NCBI GenBank assembly: GCA_902577525.1
Contig: CACGZG010000001.1
Coordinates: 62,001 to 126,000, forward strand
DNA length: 64,000 bases
Reading direction: 5' to 3'
Source: an uncultured Pelagibacteraceae bacterium
GTDB lineage: Bacteria; Pseudomonadota; Alphaproteobacteria; Pelagibacterales; Pelagibacteraceae
The notes beneath the pieces were generated by a model. It did not search any database. It was given only the letters and a program-made list of their open reading frames with translations, and was not told the DNA's origin. The first letter of the stretch is position 1; each line of letters starts with the position of its first letter. Below are positions 21,422 through 44,864 of the stretch, one piece after another. The translations under genes and the position numbers were made by a program.

Positions 21422-22537
21422 TTATTGTTTTGGAAAATAATCTTTTAATTCACCTTCTCTGTATACATCTGCAGTGCAACAATGAAGTCCTCCTCCAAAA
21501 GCATAAGCATCTCTTAATTCTACAGGAATAACTTCCATACCAAGTTTATCTAACTGTTCAGCTTGATATATTTCACTTTTCTCTACACATACTGTTTTTG
21601 GATCTAAAACTAAAACATTCATAGATAACCAAACTGATGAATAACAAAGTGGAGGCGGCTCATTATGAGCTGGTTGAGCAGCATCAATTATTTTCCAACC
21701 ATTTTTTTCAAATAATTTTCTCTGTTCATTCGGCAATCTTCTCTGCGGGTTATTGATTATTAAGCCTTCCTTAATAGGTGTGAATGTTGCATCTATATGT
21801 ATAGGGTAAGGATCTCCTGGAAAGTTGACTGCGTGCACCCTATGATTTTTATAATGTCTCTTAAGCCAATCAATACCTTTTAAATTTGTAGTAAATCCGT
21901 GTTGTACAACTAAATCTTTTCCAAATCTTAAAACGTCAGCTGCATCAAAAAGGGGTTCCTCTTCAGTTGTAACAAAAAATTTTTCCTCAGTCCACTTAAG
22001 TCTTTTTTCAATCCCTATTTTGTCAGACAAATAATCTTTATGATAATCATCATTAGTAAGTCTTGGTTTTGGAGCAGACTCATGTCTCATGTTTGGATCC
22101 AAATTATAATAATTTTTGAGTAATGGCCTGTAACAAAGATATTCAAACCATCTACAACGATAACTCATTGTCGCTTCTAAAATTTCATTACCAACAGTTA
22201 ATAATACATCTCGAGGAGGCATACAACCAAACATAGTTTCTGTCTCCCAGTCTGGAGTTGAGGTTTTTTGATTAAAATTTATAGGTGTTGGTCTATCTAC
22301 CTTTATACCTCGCTTAATTAACATATCTGAAAAATCATTTAAAAGCTGATTTGCTTTATCAACTGTATCTTTTGTTCTTGGACCAAATTTACCTCTCATA
22401 TCTGAATCTTCAGGTACTTTTGCATCTAATGCAGGTTCTGGGGCGGGAATACATGTGCCATCTGCTCTTCCAACAATTACATGTTTAAGTGGATCCCACT
22501 CATTCCAGCTATTAACAATTATTTTTCTATCCATCAT
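21422..22537 (-). CDS. Glycine amidinotransferase-like enzyme
   Basis: 371 residues. Arginine:glycine amidinotransferase family (guanidino-group-modifying superfamily). Catalytic positions are recognisable: FDAADVLRFGKD (Asp 198/201), H247 in PIHIDATF, and C353 in FGGGLHCCTADVYR, compared with the human enzyme's GGGFHCWTCDV. The classical reaction moves an amidino group from arginine to glycine, giving guanidinoacetate and ornithine; the acceptor here is not proven, and other amidinotransferases share these motifs. It is last in a tight minus-strand group: permease, creatinase, this gene (gaps of 10 and 5 bases), which strongly suggests guanidino-compound metabolism. Confidence 0.85.
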   Translation of the reverse strand: MMDRKIIVNSWNEWDPLKHVIVGRADGTCIPAPEPALDAKVPEDSDMRGKFGPRTKDTVDKANQLLNDFSDMLIKRGIKVDRPTPINFNQKTSTPDWETETMFGCMPPRDVLLTVGNEILEATMSYRCRWFEYLCYRPLLKNYYNLDPNMRHESAPKPRLTNDDYHKDYLSDKIGIEKRLKWTEEKFFVTTEEEPLFDAADVLRFGKDLVVQHGFTTNLKGIDWLKRHYKNHRVHAVNFPGDPYPIHIDATFTPIKEGLIINNPQRRLPNEQRKLFEKNGWKIIDAAQPAHNEPPPLCYSSVWLSMNVLVLDPKTVCVEKSEIYQAEQLDKLGMEVIPVELRDAYAFGGGLHCCTADVYREGELKDYFPKQ

Positions 22538-22542
22538 TAAAT

Positions 22543-23760
22543 CTAATTTTTTATAATATTATGTTCTGGGCCAAACGGAAATTTGGTAATATTTTCAGCT
22601 CCTTCCTTACCTATCACTAAAATATCATGTTCTCGATATCCGCCTGCTCCTGGATTTCCCTCAGGTATCATTATCATTGGTTCCATAGAAATAACCATAT
22701 TTTCCTCTAAAACTGTATCAATATCTTCTCTTAACTCTAAGCCCGCCTCTCTTCCATAGAAATGCGAGAGCACTCCAAACGAATGTCCATAACCAAATGT
22801 TCTATATTGTAGATAGCCAAGTTCAGCAAATAATTCATTTAATTCATGGCAAATTTCTGAGCATTTGACACCAGGTTTGATTAGTTCCAATCCTTTCTTA
22901 TGAACTTTCACATTTGCTTCCCACGCTTTTAAGGAAGCATCATCAGCATGATCTAAAAAAAGTGTTCTTTCTAAAGCAGTGTAATAACCTGAAATCATTG
23001 GAAAAGTATTTAGAGATAATATATCTCCTTTTATTAATTTTCTATTTGTTTTAGGATTATGAGCTCCGTCAGTATTAACTCCTGACTGAAACCAAACCCA
23101 AGTGTCCATATATTCTGCATCAGGATAAGTTTTTGCTATCTCTCTTTCCATTCGATCTCTTCCATTAATAGCTATTTCAATTTCAGTATTACCTTCTGCA
23201 ATATTTTTTACTATTTCTTCTCCTCCTAAATCAGCAATTCTAGCCCCACTTTTTATTATTTCTATTTCCTCTCTAGATTTAATCATTCTTAACTGCATTA
23301 AGTCTTTAGAAACATCCGAAAAAATTGAAAAAGTGAAAATAGTACCTATTTTTTCTCTGATGTCTAATGTGACATGGTCATTTTCAATTCCAATACTTTT
23401 TGGAGGTTCATCTCTTCCAATTAAAGAAACAATCGCTCTTAAAAAATTATCTCTTTTCCAATCAGTATAAATTATATTATCACAATGTGATCTTCTCCAT
23501 GGTTGTGATGCATCAATATTTGCTGAAATTGTCGAAATCTTATCTTTTGTTATCACACAACCATAGGGTCTTCCAAAAGAGCAATAAATAAAACCAGTGT
23601 AGTAAGCAACATTATGCATTGAAGTCAAAATAATCATATCTAGATTTTTTTTATCCATTACTTGTCTTAAATTACTAACTCTTCTATTGTATTCTTTATT
23701 TGAGAAAGGGAGTTTTACTTTTTTTCCATTTTTTAAGGTAAAAAAATCTGGTCTTTCCAT
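22543..23760 (-). CDS. Creatinase (creatine amidinohydrolase)
   Basis: 405 residues. Pita-bread (M24) fold, but a match to pseudomonad creatinase rather than to peptidases. From memory, long blocks agree with the P. putida enzyme: YCSFGRPYG, TYPDAEYMDTWVWFQSG, DGAHNP, RTFGYGHSFG and LSHFYGREAGLELRED. The catalytic H234 (H232 in P. putida), E264 and E360 are present, each shifted by two. The metal-ligand Asp of M24 metallopeptidases is Asn (SLNTFP), as expected for the metal-free creatinase. It cleaves creatine to sarcosine and urea. It is followed 5 bases later by the amidinotransferase and preceded by a permease. A related guanidino substrate is possible. Confidence 0.85.
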   Translation of the reverse strand: MERPDFFTLKNGKKVKLPFSNKEYNRRVSNLRQVMDKKNLDMIILTSMHNVAYYTGFIYCSFGRPYGCVITKDKISTISANIDASQPWRRSHCDNIIYTDWKRDNFLRAIVSLIGRDEPPKSIGIENDHVTLDIREKIGTIFTFSIFSDVSKDLMQLRMIKSREEIEIIKSGARIADLGGEEIVKNIAEGNTEIEIAINGRDRMEREIAKTYPDAEYMDTWVWFQSGVNTDGAHNPKTNRKLIKGDILSLNTFPMISGYYTALERTLFLDHADDASLKAWEANVKVHKKGLELIKPGVKCSEICHELNELFAELGYLQYRTFGYGHSFGVLSHFYGREAGLELREDIDTVLEENMVISMEPMIMIPEGNPGAGGYREHDILVIGKEGAENITKFPFGPEHNIIKN

Positions 23761-23770
23761 AAATTTAATA

Positions 23771-24676
23771 TTAATTTAAAGCGATAAATCTTTTATTCCA
23801 TCTCATTATTAGACTATAATAGACAAGTGATACAAAAAGAAAAAATCCACCTACAATCGTGTTGGTAGACGGAACTTCATTTATTCCGAAAAGCGGTAGC
23901 CAAACCCAAAAAATTCCTCCTATTACTTCCGTTAAAGATAATAATGTCAATTCTGCAGCCGGAATAGCCTTGGAACCAATAGAATATAAAATAAGACCTA
24001 AACAAACTAATGTACCATGTAAAGAGAACATAGATCCATTGTAACTGGTAGAAAAAAACGGTTGTTTTGTGATCAAAATTACAATAGTTGCAAAAATAAA
24101 ACAAAATAAACCTGCTATTGCAACTGTTGTAAACTTTGGTGTTTCTTTTCTCCACCTTAATGATACTGAGAATACCGAAAAACCAATTGAGGAAGTGATA
24201 CCAAATAGAAAACCTAATAAAGAGTTTTTCTCTGTGTTTCCGACAGCCATAATGATTATTCCAACAGTAGCTATTAAAATTGAAATCCAAACATTCAAAG
24301 AAATTTTTTCCTTTAAAAATAAATAAGCTAAAATTGCTGTAAAAAAGGGCATAGCAGCTAGACATAACAGGGTAACAGCTGCTGTAGTATTGGTAATTGA
24401 ATAAATAAAAGAAATCATAGCAACACCAAGACCACAACCACCAATCACTCCAGATCTACCAATTTTTTTATAATTTTTATAAAAATTTATTCCTTCTTCG
24501 AAATAGAGATATAAGTTAAGAAGAATAAAAATTGTCAAACCACGTCCAAATATATACTGCCAAGGAACCATATGTGGATTATCCATATATCTAACCACTA
24601 AAGGCCCGAATGACCAGAGAATGCCTGCAAATAAAACAACAGGGATTGCAATTTTTTCATTTTTAAGTTCGATCAT
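23771..24676 (-). CDS. EamA/DMT-family permease of the guanidino cluster
   Basis: 301 residues, ten predicted helices in two EamA halves. It starts IAIPVVLFAGILWSFGPLVVRYMD and has TTAAVTLLCLAAMPFFTAILAYLFLKEKI in the first half and ELTLLSLTEVIGGIFWVWLP in the second. It ends 10 bases before the creatinase start on the same strand, so transport of creatine, a guanidino compound or a breakdown product is plausible by context only. moeA lies 51 bases upstream on the same strand. Confidence 0.85.
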   Translation of the reverse strand: MIELKNEKIAIPVVLFAGILWSFGPLVVRYMDNPHMVPWQYIFGRGLTIFILLNLYLYFEEGINFYKNYKKIGRSGVIGGCGLGVAMISFIYSITNTTAAVTLLCLAAMPFFTAILAYLFLKEKISLNVWISILIATVGIIIMAVGNTEKNSLLGFLFGITSSIGFSVFSVSLRWRKETPKFTTVAIAGLFCFIFATIVILITKQPFFSTSYNGSMFSLHGTLVCLGLILYSIGSKAIPAAELTLLSLTEVIGGIFWVWLPLFGINEVPSTNTIVGGFFLFVSLVYYSLIMRWNKRFIALN

Positions 24677-24727: not shown

Positions 24728-25978
24728 TTAAAAAATTTTATTTGAGTAATTAAGAAAAAAACAATCTACAACATTCCCCTTTTTAAATTTTGATTTTCCC
24801 GATGGCAGTAAAGTCCAAATATTTGATTTATTAAATGATTTGATCCTAAAAGACTCTTGTCCTTTTAAAATTTCAACTTCAATTTTACCATTTTTAGTTG
24901 TATTGATTTTACTTTTTATGAATCTGGTAAAATTAACTTTTTTAATAAAATCATTTTTCAGAATTCCTTTAAAAGATTTTTCTTTTTTTATACCTAGTGA
25001 TTCTAATAAATATGGATAAACAAAAAATCTGAGACAAGCTGCAGATGAGATTGGATTTCCAGGAAGACCAAAAATAGCTTTTTGTTTTCCTTTTATCTTT
25101 GCAAATAAAATTGGCTTTCCAGGTCTAATTGCAACACCTTTAAAATAATTTGAGAGTTTAAATTTTTTTACAACATCTGGAATGTAATCAAACTTTCCAG
25201 CTGAAACTGCACCAGATGTAACAATAATATCTATTTTTGAATTCAGCATTTTTTTAATTTTTTGTGAAAATAAGTTTGCATCTTTATCACGCAAAATTCC
25301 TCCATCTTTATAGTTATATAAAAAACTTTTACTCAATGAATTGACATAATGGCTATTTGAATTTCTGACTTGCCAATTTGATATTCTACTTTTATCTGTA
25401 ATTTCATTACCAGTGGAAAAAAATAAAATATTTGGTGTCTTTTTGACTTTAATACTTTTTATTCCTAAAGTTTTTAATAACAAAATATGACTAGGATTTA
25501 AAATTGTCCCCTTTTTGATTATTAAATCATTTCTTTTAAAATCTGAACCTTTAAACCTAACATGTTGAAATTTTTTTATCTTTTTATCAATCAAAATGCT
25601 TCTAGGATTTTTTTTATTAGGATAGAATATAATTTGCTCAATTGGAATTATTGTATTTAAACCTTTTGGAATAACTCCACCAGTCATTATTTCTACAGTC
25701 TCAAACTTTTTTATTTTTTTTTTAAAAGGTCTATCCCCTGCTGCTACTATTCCTAAAATTTTAAAAAGTTTACTTTTTTTTGAATTTAAATATTTTGTAT
25801 CATCACTATTTATTGCAAAACCATCAAATGCAGCATTATCTTCAGCTGGATTATTCATCTTAGTGAAAACATTTATGGAAGACACTCTATTTAAACAATT
25901 ATTATTTTTTATGATTTCATCATCAATTTTTAATCTAGATTTTTTAAGTTGATATAAAGAATTTTTATAGCTAATCAT
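24728..25978 (-). CDS. moeA: Molybdopterin molybdenumtransferase MoeA
   Basis: 416 residues. Inserts molybdate into adenylylated molybdopterin, completing the molybdenum cofactor. Visible: PAEDNAAFDGFAI (family D-S-A-M-D-G-Y-A), GDRPFKKKIKKFETVEIMTGGVIPKG, VTSGAVSAGKFDYIPDVVKK (family G-G-V-S-V-G-x-x-D-x-x) and IFGLPGNPISS. It overlaps mobA by one base. Both serve the formate dehydrogenase encoded divergently at 28349-32772, the only molybdoenzyme in the window. Confidence 0.93.
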   Translation of the reverse strand: MISYKNSLYQLKKSRLKIDDEIIKNNNCLNRVSSINVFTKMNNPAEDNAAFDGFAINSDDTKYLNSKKSKLFKILGIVAAGDRPFKKKIKKFETVEIMTGGVIPKGLNTIIPIEQIIFYPNKKNPRSILIDKKIKKFQHVRFKGSDFKRNDLIIKKGTILNPSHILLLKTLGIKSIKVKKTPNILFFSTGNEITDKSRISNWQVRNSNSHYVNSLSKSFLYNYKDGGILRDKDANLFSQKIKKMLNSKIDIIVTSGAVSAGKFDYIPDVVKKFKLSNYFKGVAIRPGKPILFAKIKGKQKAIFGLPGNPISSAACLRFFVYPYLLESLGIKKEKSFKGILKNDFIKKVNFTRFIKSKINTTKNGKIEVEILKGQESFRIKSFNKSNIWTLLPSGKSKFKKGNVVDCFFLNYSNKIF

Positions 25979-26577
25979 TATTTTACTTTCATAGCATTAT
26001 CAAAGTCTTCTTTTGTATTAATATTAAAGAAAGGATCAATATTTTTATAGTCAATATTAATTACATTTACACCAATAGAATTTGCCCAAGTTTCAACTTT
26101 TCTTTCACCAACGGATAGGTCTTTTTCTAACTGTTTTAATAAATCTAATGACCAAAGACCAAAAATATTATGCCTTGTATTCTTACTTTTAACAAAAAAT
26201 AATTTACTATCCTTAATATTAATTTTTTCATAAAATTTTTTTAGTTCCTTTTTAGTGAAAAAAGGAGTGTCTATAGGAAAAGTTGATATCCAATTGTATT
26301 TTTTATTATTATTTTTTATCCATTTCATTGCTGAAAGAACACCACCCAAGGGGCCTAATCCCTCTTTAAAATCTTTTGTTAAAGAAATTTTTTTTGATTT
26401 CGTAAAACTAATTGGCTTATTAACAACTATCAATGTCTCATTAAATTCATCAACTATTTCTGATAGAATATGGTCAATTAACATTTTTCCTTTAAATCTA
26501 ATCTGAGATTTATCCTTACCAAATCTTTGTGACTTTCCTCCTGCTAGCACTACAGCTAAAATATTGTTATGATCCAT
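25978..26577 (-). CDS. mobA: Molybdenum cofactor guanylyltransferase MobA
   Basis: 199 residues. Attaches GMP to Mo-molybdopterin, giving the MGD cofactor that formate dehydrogenases need. The N-terminal VVLAGGKSQRFGKDKS is the nucleotidyltransferase signature (L-A-G-G-x-S-x-R-x-G-x-D-K), and WISTFPIDTPFF supplies the metal-binding Asp. Its start is 43 bases from the divergent NifU-like gene, so the two Mo-related operons share one control region (26578-26620). Confidence 0.93.
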   Translation of the reverse strand: MDHNNILAVVLAGGKSQRFGKDKSQIRFKGKMLIDHILSEIVDEFNETLIVVNKPISFTKSKKISLTKDFKEGLGPLGGVLSAMKWIKNNNKKYNWISTFPIDTPFFTKKELKKFYEKINIKDSKLFFVKSKNTRHNIFGLWSLDLLKQLEKDLSVGERKVETWANSIGVNVINIDYKNIDPFFNINTKEDFDNAMKVK

Positions 26578-40316: not shown

Positions 40317-43187
40317 TTAAGCTGCATCTTCTTTAAATTCATCCATGCTTGGGCAAGTGCAAAAAATATTCTTATCACCATATACATTGTCAACTCTTGC
40401 AACAGGTGGCCAAAATTTATTAGCTCTTAAAAATTTCGATGGATAAGCTGCTTCTTGTCTCGTGTATTTGTGTTCCCAATTATCTGAAGCAAGCTCAGTG
40501 TCTGTATGAGGAGCATTTTTAATTGGATTATCTAATTTATCAAATTCACCTGATTTTATTTTTTCAATTTCTTGTTTAATCTTAATTAAAGTGTCACAAA
40601 ATCTATCGATTTCTGATAAGCCCTCACTTTCCGTCGGCTCTATCATCATAGTACCAGATACAGGCCATGACATAGTTGGTGCATGAAATCCAAAATCTAT
40701 TAATCTTTTTGCAATATCTTCCTCCGTTACCCCTGTCTCTGATTTAATATTTCTGATATCAATAATACATTCGTGTGCAACATTACCATTTGATCCTTTA
40801 TACAAAATTGGAAAATGATCTTTTAGTTTATGGGCAATATAATTCGCATTTAAAATTGCAACTTGAGAAGCAAGTTTTAATCCTGCTGATCCCATCATTT
40901 TAATGTACATCCAAGAAATAGATAGAATACTTGAACTGCCCCAAGGAGCAGCCGATACCGCCCCAATACCAGTAGTCGGCCCACAATCTTTTATTACTGG
41001 ATGATTAGGTAAATAAACTTGTAAATGTTTTTTACATGCAATAGGTCCCATTCCAGGTCCTCCCCCTCCATGAGGAATACAAAATGTTTTATGTAAATTG
41101 ATATGACAAACGTCTGGACCAAAATTTCCAGGCTTTGCGACTCCGACTAAGGCGTTTAAATTTGCTCCATCCATATAAACCTGTCCACCATGTTTGTGAA
41201 CTAACTCACAAATATCAATTATTTTTTCCTCAAATACTCCGTGGGTAGACGGGTAAGTTACCATTAACGCTCCAAGGTTTTCTGAATGTTGCTCCACTTT
41301 TTTCTTTAAATCATCAAAATCAACATTTCCCTCTTTATCACAATTAACAACTACAACCTTCATTCCAACCATTTGTGCACTTGCTGGGTTAGTGCCATGT
41401 GCTGAACTTGGGATTAAACATATATTACGATTAGCCTCACCTCTATCTAAATGATATTTTCTAATAACCATTAAACCTGCATATTCACCTTGAGCACCTG
41501 CGTTAGGTTGTAAAGAGACACCTGAAAAACCTGTTATAGATCTTAACCAATTTTTTAAATCAGTGAATAAATCTCTAAATCCCTCCATTTGTTCAATTGG
41601 AACAAAAGGATGAGGTTCTGCAAATTCTTTCCAAGAAATTGGTATCATTTCAGCTGCAGCATTTAATTTCATTGTACATGAGCCAAGTGCTATCATAGTT
41701 CTATTCAATGCTATATCCTTATCCTCTAACCTTTTTAAATATCTTAGCATTTCAGTTTCTGAATGATATGAGTTGAATACTGGATGTTCTAAATATTTTG
41801 AAGTTCTTAATAAATTTTTTGGAAGATTAGGTAATCTTACCGATGGATCTTCTTTTTTAATTGACTCTGCTGCATTAAAAATTTTTAATAATTGATTTAC
41901 TCTATAAACATTTTTTCTTTCATCAAATGAAACAGCTAGCATTTCAGAATTTACTCTTCGAATGTTAACTCTCTGGTTCAGAGCATTCTTATAAATTTGA
42001 TCAGTTTTTTCTTTGGTGATAATCGTAACAGTATCAAAAAAATTATTCGAATAAAGCTCGTATCCAGATTGTTTTATTTTGTCAGCAAAACTTTTTGCTA
42101 ATTGAGACACTCTTTCAGAAATATTTCTAATTCCATTTGGACCATGATAAATAGCATATGCAGCTGATACAATTGCTAATAAGGCTTGAGCAGTACAAAT
42201 GTTACTTGTCGCCTTATCTCTTCTAATATGTTGCTCTCTAGTTTGTAAAGATAATCTATATGCCTTATTACCATGCCTATCAACTGACACACCGACAATT
42301 CTTCCAGGCATCGATCTTTTGTATTCATCTTTAGTCGCAAAAAAAGCTGCATGAGGACCTCCATATCCCATCGGAATACCAAATCTTTGAGAGCTTCCAA
42401 CTGCTATATCAGCGCCAAGTTCCCTTGGCGTTTTTAGTTTTGCTAACGCTAATAAATCACAAGCTAATATCGCCTTCCCATTCTTTTTATGAATTTTGCT
42501 AATCGCTTCACTCGGGTCTTTTATATCTCCTAAAGTTCCAGGATATTGTAAAATTCCACAAACTAAATCTTCTTTTAATTGATCTAAAACCTCATCTTCT
42601 TTTCCTACTAGAACTTTTAAACCCATTGGTTCAGCTCTTGTTTGAATTACATTTATTGTTTGGGGGTGGCAATCCTCAGATACAAATACTAAATTACTAT
42701 CTTTTTTATTTAATCTATGACTAAGACCCATGGCCTCTGCTGCAGCCGTACCCTCATCTAATAAAGAAGCATTAGCAATATCCATTCCTGTAAAGTCAAC
42801 AATCATTTGTTGAAAGTTTAATAACATCTCAAGTCTTCCTTGAGCTACCTCAGGCTGATAAGGTGTATAGGAAGTGTACCAACCTGGATTTTCTAATATA
42901 TTTCTTAAAATAACATATGGTGTATATGTTCCATAATAACCCATACCAATAAAATTTGAGTAAACTTGATTTTTTTTCGAAATTGCTCGTAACTTTCTTA
43001 AAGCCTCGTACTCTGAGTTAGAATCACCAATATTAAGTTCACCTTTAAACTTTATTTTTTCTGGAACAGTGCTGTCAATTAAATCATCTAATGATTTATA
43101 ATTTAGTTCTTTTAACATTTTTAATTGATCTTCTTTTGATGGACCAATGTGTCTTTTTAAAAAATCTTTTTCAGAATTTGGTAACAT
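40317..43187 (-). CDS. gcvP: Glycine dehydrogenase (decarboxylating), P-protein
   Basis: 956 residues, the single-chain (fused) form. PLP enzyme that decarboxylates glycine and loads aminomethyl onto GcvH. Seen: FIGMGYYGTYTPYVILRNILENPGW, EGTAAAEAM, and the PLP-lysine region NLHKTFCIPHGGGGPGMGP in the C-terminal half. Its start overlaps the gcvH stop by a base, and it is third in gcvT-gcvH-gcvP. Confidence 0.97.
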   Translation of the reverse strand: MLPNSEKDFLKRHIGPSKEDQLKMLKELNYKSLDDLIDSTVPEKIKFKGELNIGDSNSEYEALRKLRAISKKNQVYSNFIGMGYYGTYTPYVILRNILENPGWYTSYTPYQPEVAQGRLEMLLNFQQMIVDFTGMDIANASLLDEGTAAAEAMGLSHRLNKKDSNLVFVSEDCHPQTINVIQTRAEPMGLKVLVGKEDEVLDQLKEDLVCGILQYPGTLGDIKDPSEAISKIHKKNGKAILACDLLALAKLKTPRELGADIAVGSSQRFGIPMGYGGPHAAFFATKDEYKRSMPGRIVGVSVDRHGNKAYRLSLQTREQHIRRDKATSNICTAQALLAIVSAAYAIYHGPNGIRNISERVSQLAKSFADKIKQSGYELYSNNFFDTVTIITKEKTDQIYKNALNQRVNIRRVNSEMLAVSFDERKNVYRVNQLLKIFNAAESIKKEDPSVRLPNLPKNLLRTSKYLEHPVFNSYHSETEMLRYLKRLEDKDIALNRTMIALGSCTMKLNAAAEMIPISWKEFAEPHPFVPIEQMEGFRDLFTDLKNWLRSITGFSGVSLQPNAGAQGEYAGLMVIRKYHLDRGEANRNICLIPSSAHGTNPASAQMVGMKVVVVNCDKEGNVDFDDLKKKVEQHSENLGALMVTYPSTHGVFEEKIIDICELVHKHGGQVYMDGANLNALVGVAKPGNFGPDVCHINLHKTFCIPHGGGGPGMGPIACKKHLQVYLPNHPVIKDCGPTTGIGAVSAAPWGSSSILSISWMYIKMMGSAGLKLASQVAILNANYIAHKLKDHFPILYKGSNGNVAHECIIDIRNIKSETGVTEEDIAKRLIDFGFHAPTMSWPVSGTMMIEPTESEGLSEIDRFCDTLIKIKQEIEKIKSGEFDKLDNPIKNAPHTDTELASDNWEHKYTRQEAAYPSKFLRANKFWPPVARVDNVYGDKNIFCTCPSMDEFKEDAA

Positions 43188-43567
43188 TATGCTGAAGTCT
43201 CCTTTGCAAATTTATCATAATCGTCTTTATTCATTAAAGTATCCATTTCTGATTGATCTTTTATTTTCAGTTTAAAAAACCACGCCGAATCCTCTGGATC
43301 TTGATTTATCTTTGATGGATCATCTACTATAGCTTGATTGGTATCAACTACTTCACCACTCACAGGGGTATATACATCACTAGCTGCTTTGGTTGACTCC
43401 ACGACACCAGCTGTTCCATCTTTCTCTACACTAGAACCTTTTTCTGGTAGTTCCGCAAACACTATATCCCCTAGCATCTCTGTTGCATGTTTTGTGATAC
43501 CAATGGTTGCAATATCTCCATCTAATTTAATCCACTCGTGTTCTTTTGAATACTTTACTTCACTCAT
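43187..43567 (-). CDS. gcvH: Glycine cleavage system H protein
   Basis: 126 residues. Lipoyl carrier that shuttles aminomethyl between GcvP and GcvT; the lipoylated lysine is K60 in VESTKAASD. Starts [10 protein letters not shown], as in most GcvH. It has a clear ribosome-binding site (AAAAGGAG) inside the end of gcvT and abuts both neighbours. Confidence 0.97.
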
Positions 43568-44670
43568 TAGTTTACTCCTTTTACATAACTTTTTTTATAA
43601 AATGGTAAGCTGCAAATACTTGCAGGATGTTTTTTACCTCTAACTTCTAAAAATACTTTAGTATTTTTTTTTGAAAATTCATTTTCCACATAACCCATTG
43701 CAACAGGTCCATTAACACTTGGTCCAAATGTACCACTTGTGATTTCTCCAATATGAACATCTGATTGATTAAATATTTTTGTTTTTTCTCTAGCAATAAT
43801 TCTTCCCTCAGGTTTAATTCCAACTCTTATTTTGCTGACACCATCATTTAATTGTTTAATAATTATGTCAGAGCCAATAAAATCTCCCTTAGAGATTCTT
43901 TCTTTTGAAATAGCCCACTTTAAATTTGCTTCCACTGGAGTTTTGTCTTTATCAAGATCATGACCATAAAGACATAAACCAGCTTCCAATCTTAATGTAT
44001 CTCTCGCTCCAAGACCAATTAATTTAGATCCTTTGTTAATTAATTCTCTAGTTAATTTGTCTACAAAATTATTTGCAATTGATATCTCAAAACCGTCTTC
44101 ACCTGTATAACCAGATCGCGTAATATAAACTTTCTGATTTTCAAATGTAAACCAGTTTCCAGACATAAAATTAAGATCTTTCACACCATTGATAACTTCA
44201 TTAAGAATTTCTGATGATTTAGGACCCTGAATGGCAATTAGAGATCTACTTTCATCCAAAACCATTTTATATTTCTCTTTAAGTAGCTCTTTTAAAATTT
44301 TAAAGTCATTTTCTTTGCATGCTGCATTAAGGATTATCAAAAAGCCTTCATTTGTTTTTGTGATAATTAAATCATCATGTATCCCAGCATCTTTATCCAT
44401 TAAGAAGCTGTATTTTGAATGATTTAGTCTCAATTTTTTAAGATCTAAAGGAAAAATTTTTTCTAAATCTTTAATTAAGTCTTCACCACCGTAAATAAAT
44501 AGTTGACCCATATGAGAAACATCGAAGATACCTGAATGATTTCTTGTGAATTTATGCTCTTCTACAATACCTTCCGAATATTGTATCGGCATTTGATAGC
44601 CAGCAAATTCAACAAATTTTGCATTACAATCTTGATGTAATTGGTACAACGATGTTTTTTTTATTTCCAT
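43567..44670 (-). CDS. gcvT: Glycine cleavage system aminomethyltransferase (T protein)
   Basis: 367 residues. Transfers the one-carbon unit from GcvH to tetrahydrofolate, releasing ammonia. N-terminal [42 protein letters not shown] and [13 protein letters not shown] are all GcvT blocks. The start ATG (44668-44670) is part of the extended P1 helix of the upstream glycine riboswitch. It is first in gcvT-gcvH-gcvP. Confidence 0.97.
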
Positions 44671-44836
44671 ATTAACTCTTTGTACCCATCTGTATATTTG
44701 CCTGAGAGTTTTGCTCCTTCGGCGAGAATTAAATCTCTTTCCAGAGTTAATATGTTACGGTCCTTTTTGCCTGAGAGATTCCTGGGTGGTTGCTCCTTCG
44801 GCGCTACGATATTCTGTAGTCTCTCCCGTAGCAGGA
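44668..44836 (-). promoter_or_regulatory. Tandem glycine riboswitch controlling gcvTHP
   Basis: On the minus strand two glycine aptamers follow each other. The conserved GCCGAAGGAGCAA core occurs at 44790-44802 and 44711-44723, each followed by CTCTCAGGC (44769-44777 and 44700-44708). Aptamer 1 begins GCTACGGGAGAG and closes at CCGTAAC; aptamer 2 begins ACTCTGGAAAGAG. The P1 stem of aptamer 2 is a perfect 12-bp pairing between 44743-44754 and 44668-44679. This stem includes the AGAG ribosome-binding site and the gcvT ATG, so control is probably at translation initiation. Glycine riboswitches before gcvT are common, including in SAR11. Confidence 0.95.
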
Positions 44837-44864
44837 TAATCTTACATGTATGGAAAAAAGTCAA
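44836..44864 (-). promoter_or_regulatory. Promoter of the glycine riboswitch / gcv operon
   Basis: Read on the minus strand: TTGACT (44864-44859, one mismatch to TTGACA), 17 bases, then GATTAT (44841-44836, two mismatches to TATAAT). Transcription would start near 44830, right at the P1 stem of aptamer 1, which fits a riboswitch leader with no spare 5' sequence. The -35 box overlaps the stop of the upstream permease gene. Confidence 0.6.

What the first reader, a model, noticed from the sequence alone, without database searches (positions are those of the whole stretch)
21422..24676. Compact guanidino-compound cassette: permease, creatinase, amidinotransferase
Three genes with 5-10 base gaps. 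The creatinase keeps H234, E264 and E360 and long matches to the pseudomonad enzyme; the amidinotransferase keeps its Cys/His/Asp. Together they could take up creatine, release sarcosine and urea, and exchange amidino groups with arginine/ornithine. Pairing a biosynthetic-type amidinotransferase with a degradative creatinase is unexpected and may instead run in reverse to salvage guanidinoacetate nitrogen.
Basis: partly seen in the sequence, partly recalled or inferred. Interest (0 to 1): 0.62.

Follow-up and report, generated by a model that had tools for sequence, protein, structure and literature searches.

The report
SAR11 creatine and guanidino-compound operon
In SAR11 ocean bacteria, a transporter gene and an enzyme that moves guanidino groups form a conserved pair, and some strains carry a creatine-splitting enzyme between them; together they may help these glycine-requiring cells obtain glycine and nitrogen from creatine-like compounds.

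Summary
The window is a Pelagibacter-type (SAR11) genome. On the minus strand it carries an EamA-type transporter, a creatinase and an AGAT-family amidinotransferase (AT), with gaps of 10 and 5 bases and the catalytic residues kept. The trio is conserved: AT directly follows creatinase in 50 of 51 loci with room, and EamA directly precedes it in 50 of 52.

The trio is not the core unit. Of 247 genomes drawn from the order, 189 have AT (E 1e-20) but 54 the creatinase (E 1e-60). In 20 AT loci without creatinase, EamA sits directly beside AT in 16. On an AT tree, creatinase within the genus fits one gain and several losses. In 72 of 149 loci a threonine-aldolase-type gene follows AT.

Best reading: an optional glycine-yielding operon. 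Creatinase gives sarcosine plus urea; AT run backwards would give glycine plus arginine. SAR11 subclade I needs external glycine; this genome shows no full-length SerA and no urease alpha. Direction and substrate of AT and EamA are inferred; the AT acceptor flap differs from human AGAT. A SAR11 creatinase gene was already in print.

The parts
23771..24676 (-). EamA (DMT-type) transporter, 301 aa, first gene of the cassette; substrate and direction unknown
   Evidence: ORF; PF00892; directly upstream of creatinase in 50 of 52 loci with room, directly upstream of AT in 16 of 20 creatinase-free AT loci
22543..23760 (-). creatinase (creatine amidinohydrolase), 405 aa; predicted creatine + water to sarcosine + urea
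   Evidence: phmmer to 1chm E 2.2e-161; H234/E264/E360 invariant in 53 of 53
21422..22537 (-). AGAT-family amidinotransferase (AT), 371 aa; predicted reversible amidino exchange with arginine/ornithine; acceptor-site flap DPYPI where human AGAT has DPNPM
   Evidence: phmmer to human AGAT E 1.4e-85; residues; in 189 of 247 genomes drawn from the order
24728..26577 (-). moeA and mobA (molybdenum cofactor genes), same strand upstream with a 51-base gap; common but not constant neighbours, probably not part of the system
   Evidence: MoeA next to EamA in 43 of 50 creatinase loci and 4 of 16 creatinase-free loci

Best explanation
The cassette is an optional salvage operon of SAR11 that turns dissolved guanidino acids into glycine or its precursors. 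Inferred: the EamA protein moves the guanidino compound or a product across the membrane. Predicted from close homology: creatinase splits creatine into sarcosine and urea. Sarcosine can then go to glycine through the sarcosine/dimethylglycine dehydrogenase-type enzymes present in this genome, releasing one-carbon units. Inferred: the AT runs in reverse, guanidinoacetate + ornithine to glycine + arginine, so guanidino nitrogen is kept as arginine instead of being lost as urea. In about half of the loci read, though not in the window, a threonine-aldolase-type enzyme, another glycine-forming type, follows directly. The common currency would be glycine, which SAR11 subclade I cannot make by the canonical route. 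Shown: gene content, conserved residues, conserved adjacency, EamA-AT present without creatinase. Not shown: substrates, direction, expression.
For: Creatinase and AGAT identity. Trio conserved while flanks change. EamA-AT pair in 16 of 20 AT loci without creatinase. On the AT tree, creatinase inside the genus is confined to one subclade, with about four later losses. A threonine-aldolase-type gene starts a few bases after AT as first downstream ORF in 72 of 149 loci; counted by homology, in 23 of 51 creatinase loci of the order genomes, 6 of 20 creatinase-free loci, and 47 of 75 named loci with at least 200 bases of room; its best PDB matches are an aldolase and threonine aldolases. Sarcosine/dimethylglycine dehydrogenase-type genes in the own genome; gcvT/H/P-type genes with a glycine riboswitch in the same window. 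No SerA match at E 1e-80 in the own genome, where 9 of 247 genomes reach the family cut-off, and no urease alpha. SAR11 glycine requirement: PMC6775983, passages. AmtA was shown reversible and amidinotransferases are described as reversible (PMC4887976 and PMC3684758, passages); in vitro constant about 1 for hog kidney AGAT (PMC9950171, passages).
Against: No activity data. The AT flap differs from human AGAT at the two positions tied to substrate handling (Y244 and I246, each in 86 of 97), so the acceptor may not be glycine. The glycine link also fits the forward direction (glycine as acceptor). EamA proteins are often exporters (recalled). The aldolase gene is absent beside the cassette in the window and no match was found in its genome (no positive control). 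Genera g5 and g6 show neither AT nor a SerA over the cut-off, so glycine need does not demand AT. Outside the order, of 17 AT loci fetched only one (L124) showed a creatinase in the stretch, and neighbours vary widely; second-copy and f2-family loci in the order also have other neighbours.
Confidence: 0.45

Rival explanations
1. The AT acts on another acceptor (for example another amino acid, taurine-type amine or polyamine), and the EamA protein imports or exports that compound. Creatinase is a separate creatine-use gene that settled in the same operon.
For: The 300-flap is DPYPI, unlike human DPNPM, AmtA DMHPM and CyrA DIFPS (the three known flaps from PMC4887976, passages). Positions 300/302 are tied to specificity in CyrA (PMC3684758 and PMC4887976, passages). 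EamA-AT is common without creatinase. EamA genes of a different subfamily (about 25% identical to the window's) follow AT in second-clade loci.
Confidence: 0.3
2. The AT works forward (arginine + glycine to guanidinoacetate + ornithine) and EamA exports guanidinoacetate, or the cell keeps it as a solute; creatinase is unrelated creatine catabolism.
For: AGAT is classically biosynthetic; EamA proteins are often exporters (both recalled); the aldolase could supply glycine.
Against: Spending glycine in a glycine-requiring cell is costly (requirement: PMC6775983, passages). Whether the genome has a guanidinoacetate methyltransferase was not searched.
Confidence: 0.2
3. Mere syntenic hitchhiking: streamlined SAR11 genomes keep gene order, so adjacency says little about shared function.
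For: Several flanking genes are also often conserved; MoeA is beside EamA in 43 of 50 creatinase loci and 67 of 67 named loci with room.
Against: Flanks vary more than the pair or trio: MoeA beside EamA in 4 of 16 creatinase-free loci, the coiled-coil gene near AT in 5 of 48 and 5 of 19. Creatinase is present or absent exactly between the two genes.
Confidence: 0.05

Closest known systems
Creatinase (creatine amidinohydrolase, EC 3.5.3.3), e.g. PDB 1chm, 7yto, 1kp0
   Same: Match over residues 4-404 of 405, E 2.2e-161 to 1chm; catalytic H/E/E kept
   Different: Setting: SAR11, between an EamA gene and an amidinotransferase gene, no urease alpha found
L-arginine:glycine amidinotransferase (AGAT/GATM, human; bacterial relatives CyrA, AmtA, StrB1, SxtG, HsvA)
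   Same: Near full-length match, E 1.4e-85 to the human enzyme; Asp/His/Cys kept
   Different: Acceptor-site flap DPYPI; the residue after the catalytic Cys (human W408) is C in 72 of 97; linked to a degradative gene instead of a toxin or antibiotic cluster
SAR11 creatinase gene cluster SAR2086 in PMC3686209 (2013; passages read)
   Same: A creatinase in SAR11 subgroup 1a and genes for conversion of creatine to glycine are already stated there
   Different: 'amidinotransferase' has 0 occurrences in the text; the passages say nothing of EamA or an operon
Creatine use in marine AEGEAN169 (Ca. Indicimonas; PMC11366302, passages read)
   Same: Creatine to sarcosine with sarcosine oxidase proposed in another marine alphaproteobacterial group
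   Different: 'guanidino' has 0 occurrences; the passages mention no amidinotransferase

Membership tests
Creatinase (EC 3.5.3.3) | Full-length similarity to characterised creatinases well above other M24 proteins | tested here: met
   540 bits to 1chm, 527 to 7yto, 494 to 1kp0; next M24 protein 94.9 bits
Creatinase (EC 3.5.3.3) | Catalytic His and two Glu | tested here: met
   H234, E264, E360; invariant in 53 of 53; roles recalled
Creatinase (EC 3.5.3.3) | Hydrolysis of creatine to sarcosine and urea | not testable with these tools
   needs enzyme assay
Creatinase (EC 3.5.3.3) | Loss of the M24 metal-ligand set | not tested
   no explicit metal-ligand alignment was made
AGAT-type amidinotransferase | Asp/His/Cys catalytic set (human D254, H303, C407) | tested here: met
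   window D198, H247, C353; human set from PMC3684758, passages
AGAT-type amidinotransferase | Full-length similarity to solved members | tested here: met
   all 7 distinct PDB sequences matched at E 0.001 are AGAT, SxtG, HsvA or inosamine-phosphate amidinotransferase
L-arginine:glycine amidinotransferase (glycine as acceptor) | Human-like 300-flap with N300 and M302 | tested here: not met
   Y244 and I246; but CyrA, characterised as an arginine:glycine enzyme, also differs there (F, S), so this does not exclude glycine
L-arginine:glycine amidinotransferase (glycine as acceptor) | Amidino transfer to or from glycine | not testable with these tools
   needs enzyme assay
EamA/DMT transporter | EamA domain above curated cut-off | tested here: met
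   PF00892 69.4 bits, cut-off 28.2
Carboxylate/amino acid/amine transporter TIGR00950 | score above curated cut-off | tested here: not met
   53.9 bits, cut-off 230.2

The most novel reading that the evidence does not exclude
An AGAT-type amidinotransferase is used catabolically in much of SAR11: together with an EamA transporter it strips the amidino group of dissolved guanidino acids onto ornithine, giving glycine and arginine without loss of nitrogen. Creatinase and a threonine-aldolase-type enzyme were added later to the same operon, so animal and algal guanidino compounds relieve the glycine requirement of some of the most abundant ocean bacteria.
Probability: 0.38. Interest if true: 0.72.

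Novelty: new variant of a known kind. Interest (0 to 1): 0.5.

Why it matters
SAR11 subclade I isolates depend on outside glycine, serine or their precursors; glycine betaine and, in some strains, glycolate are known substitutes (PMC6775983, passages). A conserved operon for creatine and related guanidino acids would add a nitrogen-rich source, link zooplankton and algal metabolites to SAR11, and give a degradative role to an enzyme family known mainly for biosynthesis. Several single-contig genomes carry it, so growth tests may be possible.

Tried and rejected
Urease in the own genome: no urease alpha match. Arginase as a partner to recycle ornithine: the only arginase-family match in the own genome scores over the agmatinase cut-off and lies beside a 1,9-bis(guanidino)-5-aza-nonane synthase gene, so it is better read as polyamine synthesis. 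Riboswitch control of the cassette: at gathering thresholds Rfam gave one hit in the whole window, a glycine riboswitch upstream of gcvT, not at the cassette. DMSP lyase DddP for the M24 protein: 25 bits against a 600-bit cut-off, rejected. Viral carriage of AT: 5 pattern hits, none a relative; creatinase was not searched in viral contigs. Pattern of AT with full-length SerA: 8 of 9 SerA genomes lack AT against 50 of 238 others (lists compared by eye; Fisher p 4.6e-5), but those 8 all lie in three genera of one family and genera g5 and g6 lack both, so I do not count it as evidence of function. The gene between creatinase and AT in L154 and L226 is a 570-aa protein that I read by eye as TPR plus sulfotransferase (no family search), probably a passenger. 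Neighbour genes outside SAR11 gave no consistent theme beyond osmolyte and amino-acid genes. No structure was predicted. The genome-contig scan keeps only the best 80 of 518 relatives, all Pelagibacter, Pelagibacteraceae or Pelagibacterales by title, so it says nothing of wider distribution. In the first AT tree six divergent rows were dropped and the careful search did not finish, so the quick tree was shown. In the careful tree I left out 15 near-identical creatinase rows and all f2-family and more distant rows; its bootstrap had not settled.
Full report
OBSERVATION. The window lies in a 1.14-Mb, 30-contig genome (90.5% complete). The nearest relatives of its creatinase in named contigs are all Pelagibacter, Pelagibacteraceae or Pelagibacterales (80 loci kept). 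Three minus-strand ORFs sit at the stated places: EamA 23771-24676, creatinase 22543-23760 and amidinotransferase (AT) 21422-22537, with gaps of 10 and 5 bases. The M24 protein is a creatinase by sequence: 540 bits to 1chm against 94.9 for the best non-creatinase; H234, E264 and E360 are invariant in 53 of 53 aligned sequences. The AT matches human AGAT at E 1.4e-85 and keeps D198, H247 and C353. The transporter is EamA family. dN/dS is low for all three, with near-saturated synonymous sites.

CONSERVATION OF THE TRIO. Creatinase was found in 54 of 247 genomes drawn from the order at E 1e-60. I fetched the 53 loci of the genomes other than the window's own; in 52 the creatinase match covered at least half the query. 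AT follows directly in 50 of 51 with room and EamA precedes directly in 50 of 52 with room. Exceptions: L049, a solitary creatinase in another family of the order, and L086, where EamA is in two pieces. In the 80 named loci AT is adjacent in 73 of 76 with room and EamA in 77 of 77. Of the three AT exceptions, two have a 570-aa gene in between and one has an AT that reads as two ORFs. The named and unnamed sets overlap (for example G190:C5 and CACJMB010000005.1 both have 101460 bases), so they are not independent.

THE CORE IS EamA PLUS AT. AT occurs in 189 of 247 genomes drawn from the order at E 1e-20; comparing the two lists by eye, all 54 creatinase genomes have it. I read 20 AT loci without creatinase, 19 from creatinase-free genomes and one (L107) a second copy in a creatinase genome. 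In 16 of 20, EamA lies directly beside AT with nothing between. The other four (L091, L105, L106, L107) are AT genes of a divergent clade in other surroundings; three of them are followed by EamA genes of a different subfamily (L091, L107, and L106 as far as its contig end). The remaining members of that clade read, L103 and L104, have the usual EamA beside AT. Flanking genes vary more than the pair.

OUTSIDE THE ORDER. AT relatives are uncommon: 12 of 385 genomes of the class and 17 of 398 of the phylum at E 1e-30, the order's own genomes included. Of the 17 loci fetched from outside the order, one (L124) has a creatinase beside AT, back to back and 58% identical to the window's. Other neighbours include GcvT and MttB types (L125), ectoine-type genes (L128) and an agmatinase-family gene (L135).

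HISTORY. On a careful AT tree of 64 thinned rows, all creatinase-bearing Pelagibacter rows fall inside one supported clade (45 rows, 100/97, of which 8 lack creatinase); basal lineages have EamA-AT only; the label needs 6 changes in all, L124 included (bootstrap range 4-7). The simplest reading inside the genus is one insertion of creatinase between EamA and AT followed by about four losses. Inner support is modest and the bootstrap had not settled.

A FOURTH GENE. The first ORF after AT, a few bases on and on the same strand, is a threonine-aldolase-type enzyme in 72 of 149 loci; PDB matches are an aldolase (1v72) and threonine aldolases. By homology it is present in 23 of 51 creatinase loci and 6 of 20 creatinase-free loci of the order genomes, and in 47 of 75 named loci with room; in none of the 25 f2-family and outside loci. 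It is absent in the window, where a 75-aa ORF on the other strand follows, and one search found no match in the own genome (no positive control).

PHYSIOLOGY. SAR11 cells lack canonical serine and glycine synthesis genes and need outside glycine or precursors (PMC6775983, passages); PMC10030771 (passages) says the same of subclade I isolates, notes serABC in some subclade I/II genomes, and reports urease in a minority of SAR11. The own genome has no SerA match at E 1e-80 and no urease alpha match. It has 11 places matching a sarcosine/dimethylglycine dehydrogenase-type query, two of them nearly full length. The window also holds gcvT, gcvH and gcvP-type genes (names from my reading; gcvT supported) with a glycine riboswitch upstream, and formate dehydrogenase-type genes near the cassette (from sequence and recall, no family search).

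MECHANISM. Creatinase to sarcosine and urea is a close-homology prediction. For the AT, direction is open: AmtA was shown to be reversible (PMC4887976, passages), and hog-kidney AGAT has an in vitro constant of about 1 (PMC9950171, passages), so supply decides. In a glycine-requiring cell without urease, guanidinoacetate + ornithine to glycine + arginine would yield both glycine and arginine, while creatinase would lose urea. The repeated company of glycine-forming enzymes (creatinase, aldolase) supports a glycine link, not the direction. The flap DPYPI (human DPNPM) leaves the acceptor open. EamA direction and substrate are unknown.

PRIOR WORK. PMC3686209 (passages) already lists a creatinase cluster in SAR11 subgroup 1a and genes to convert creatine to glycine. 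PMC3160333 (passages), the SAR11 one-carbon paper, has 0 occurrences of creatin- and amidinotransferase. The listings of searches for creatinase/amidinotransferase/SAR11, glycine amidinotransferase with Pelagibacter, SAR11 with creatine, and Pelagibacter with creatinase showed no title or abstract start on the EamA-AT pair or the operon; most listed papers were not opened. The library holds open-licence papers only; a paper on creatine use in seawater was seen only as a reference.

VERDICT. Real and conserved. The enzymes are known kinds; the combination and its likely glycine-supply role are a new variant. Confidence in the mechanism is moderate.

Noticed in passing
window 44748-44838 (-), with 40317-44670 (-): Glycine riboswitch (RF00504, 67.5 bits) upstream of gcvT-gcvH-gcvP type genes.
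   Followed up: partly
L105:2479-10559: Second-clade AT between a sarcosine/dimethylglycine dehydrogenase-type protein and a homocysteine-methyltransferase-type protein on one side, and a small methyltransferase, a Rieske oxygenase resembling GbcA and a DddP-like M24 protein on the other. Possible betaine/guanidino cluster.
   Followed up: partly
L091 and L107: Second-clade AT followed by one or two EamA genes, a 2-oxoglutarate/Fe oxygenase and a luciferase-like monooxygenase, near choline dehydrogenase and TauD-type genes.
   Followed up: partly
L117:5992-8273 and L118:4823-7104: In another family of the order, AT is followed a few bases on by a DoeA-like M24 protein (L117: 445 bits, below the 613 cut-off): an independent AT-M24 pairing.
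   Followed up: partly
L128:7998-16572: AT heads a run of Amdase, PALP, ornithine cyclodeaminase-type, M20, M24 and proline racemase genes, resembling ectoine utilisation genes (likeness recalled).
   Followed up: no
L135:3434-9107: AT lies directly after an agmatinase-family gene, with a flavin reductase gene and an aldehyde-dehydrogenase-like gene upstream.
   Followed up: no
L049:2205-3422: Solitary creatinase, 84% identical to the window's, in a genome whose AT is 73% identical to the window's: suggests gene transfer.
   Followed up: no
L048:7227-7664: A second, partial AT match on the other strand near the contig end, perhaps an assembly artefact.
   Followed up: no
L141:392-2313: The own genome pairs a 1,9-bis(guanidino)-5-aza-nonane synthase gene with an agmatinase-type gene, probably homospermidine synthesis.
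   Followed up: partly
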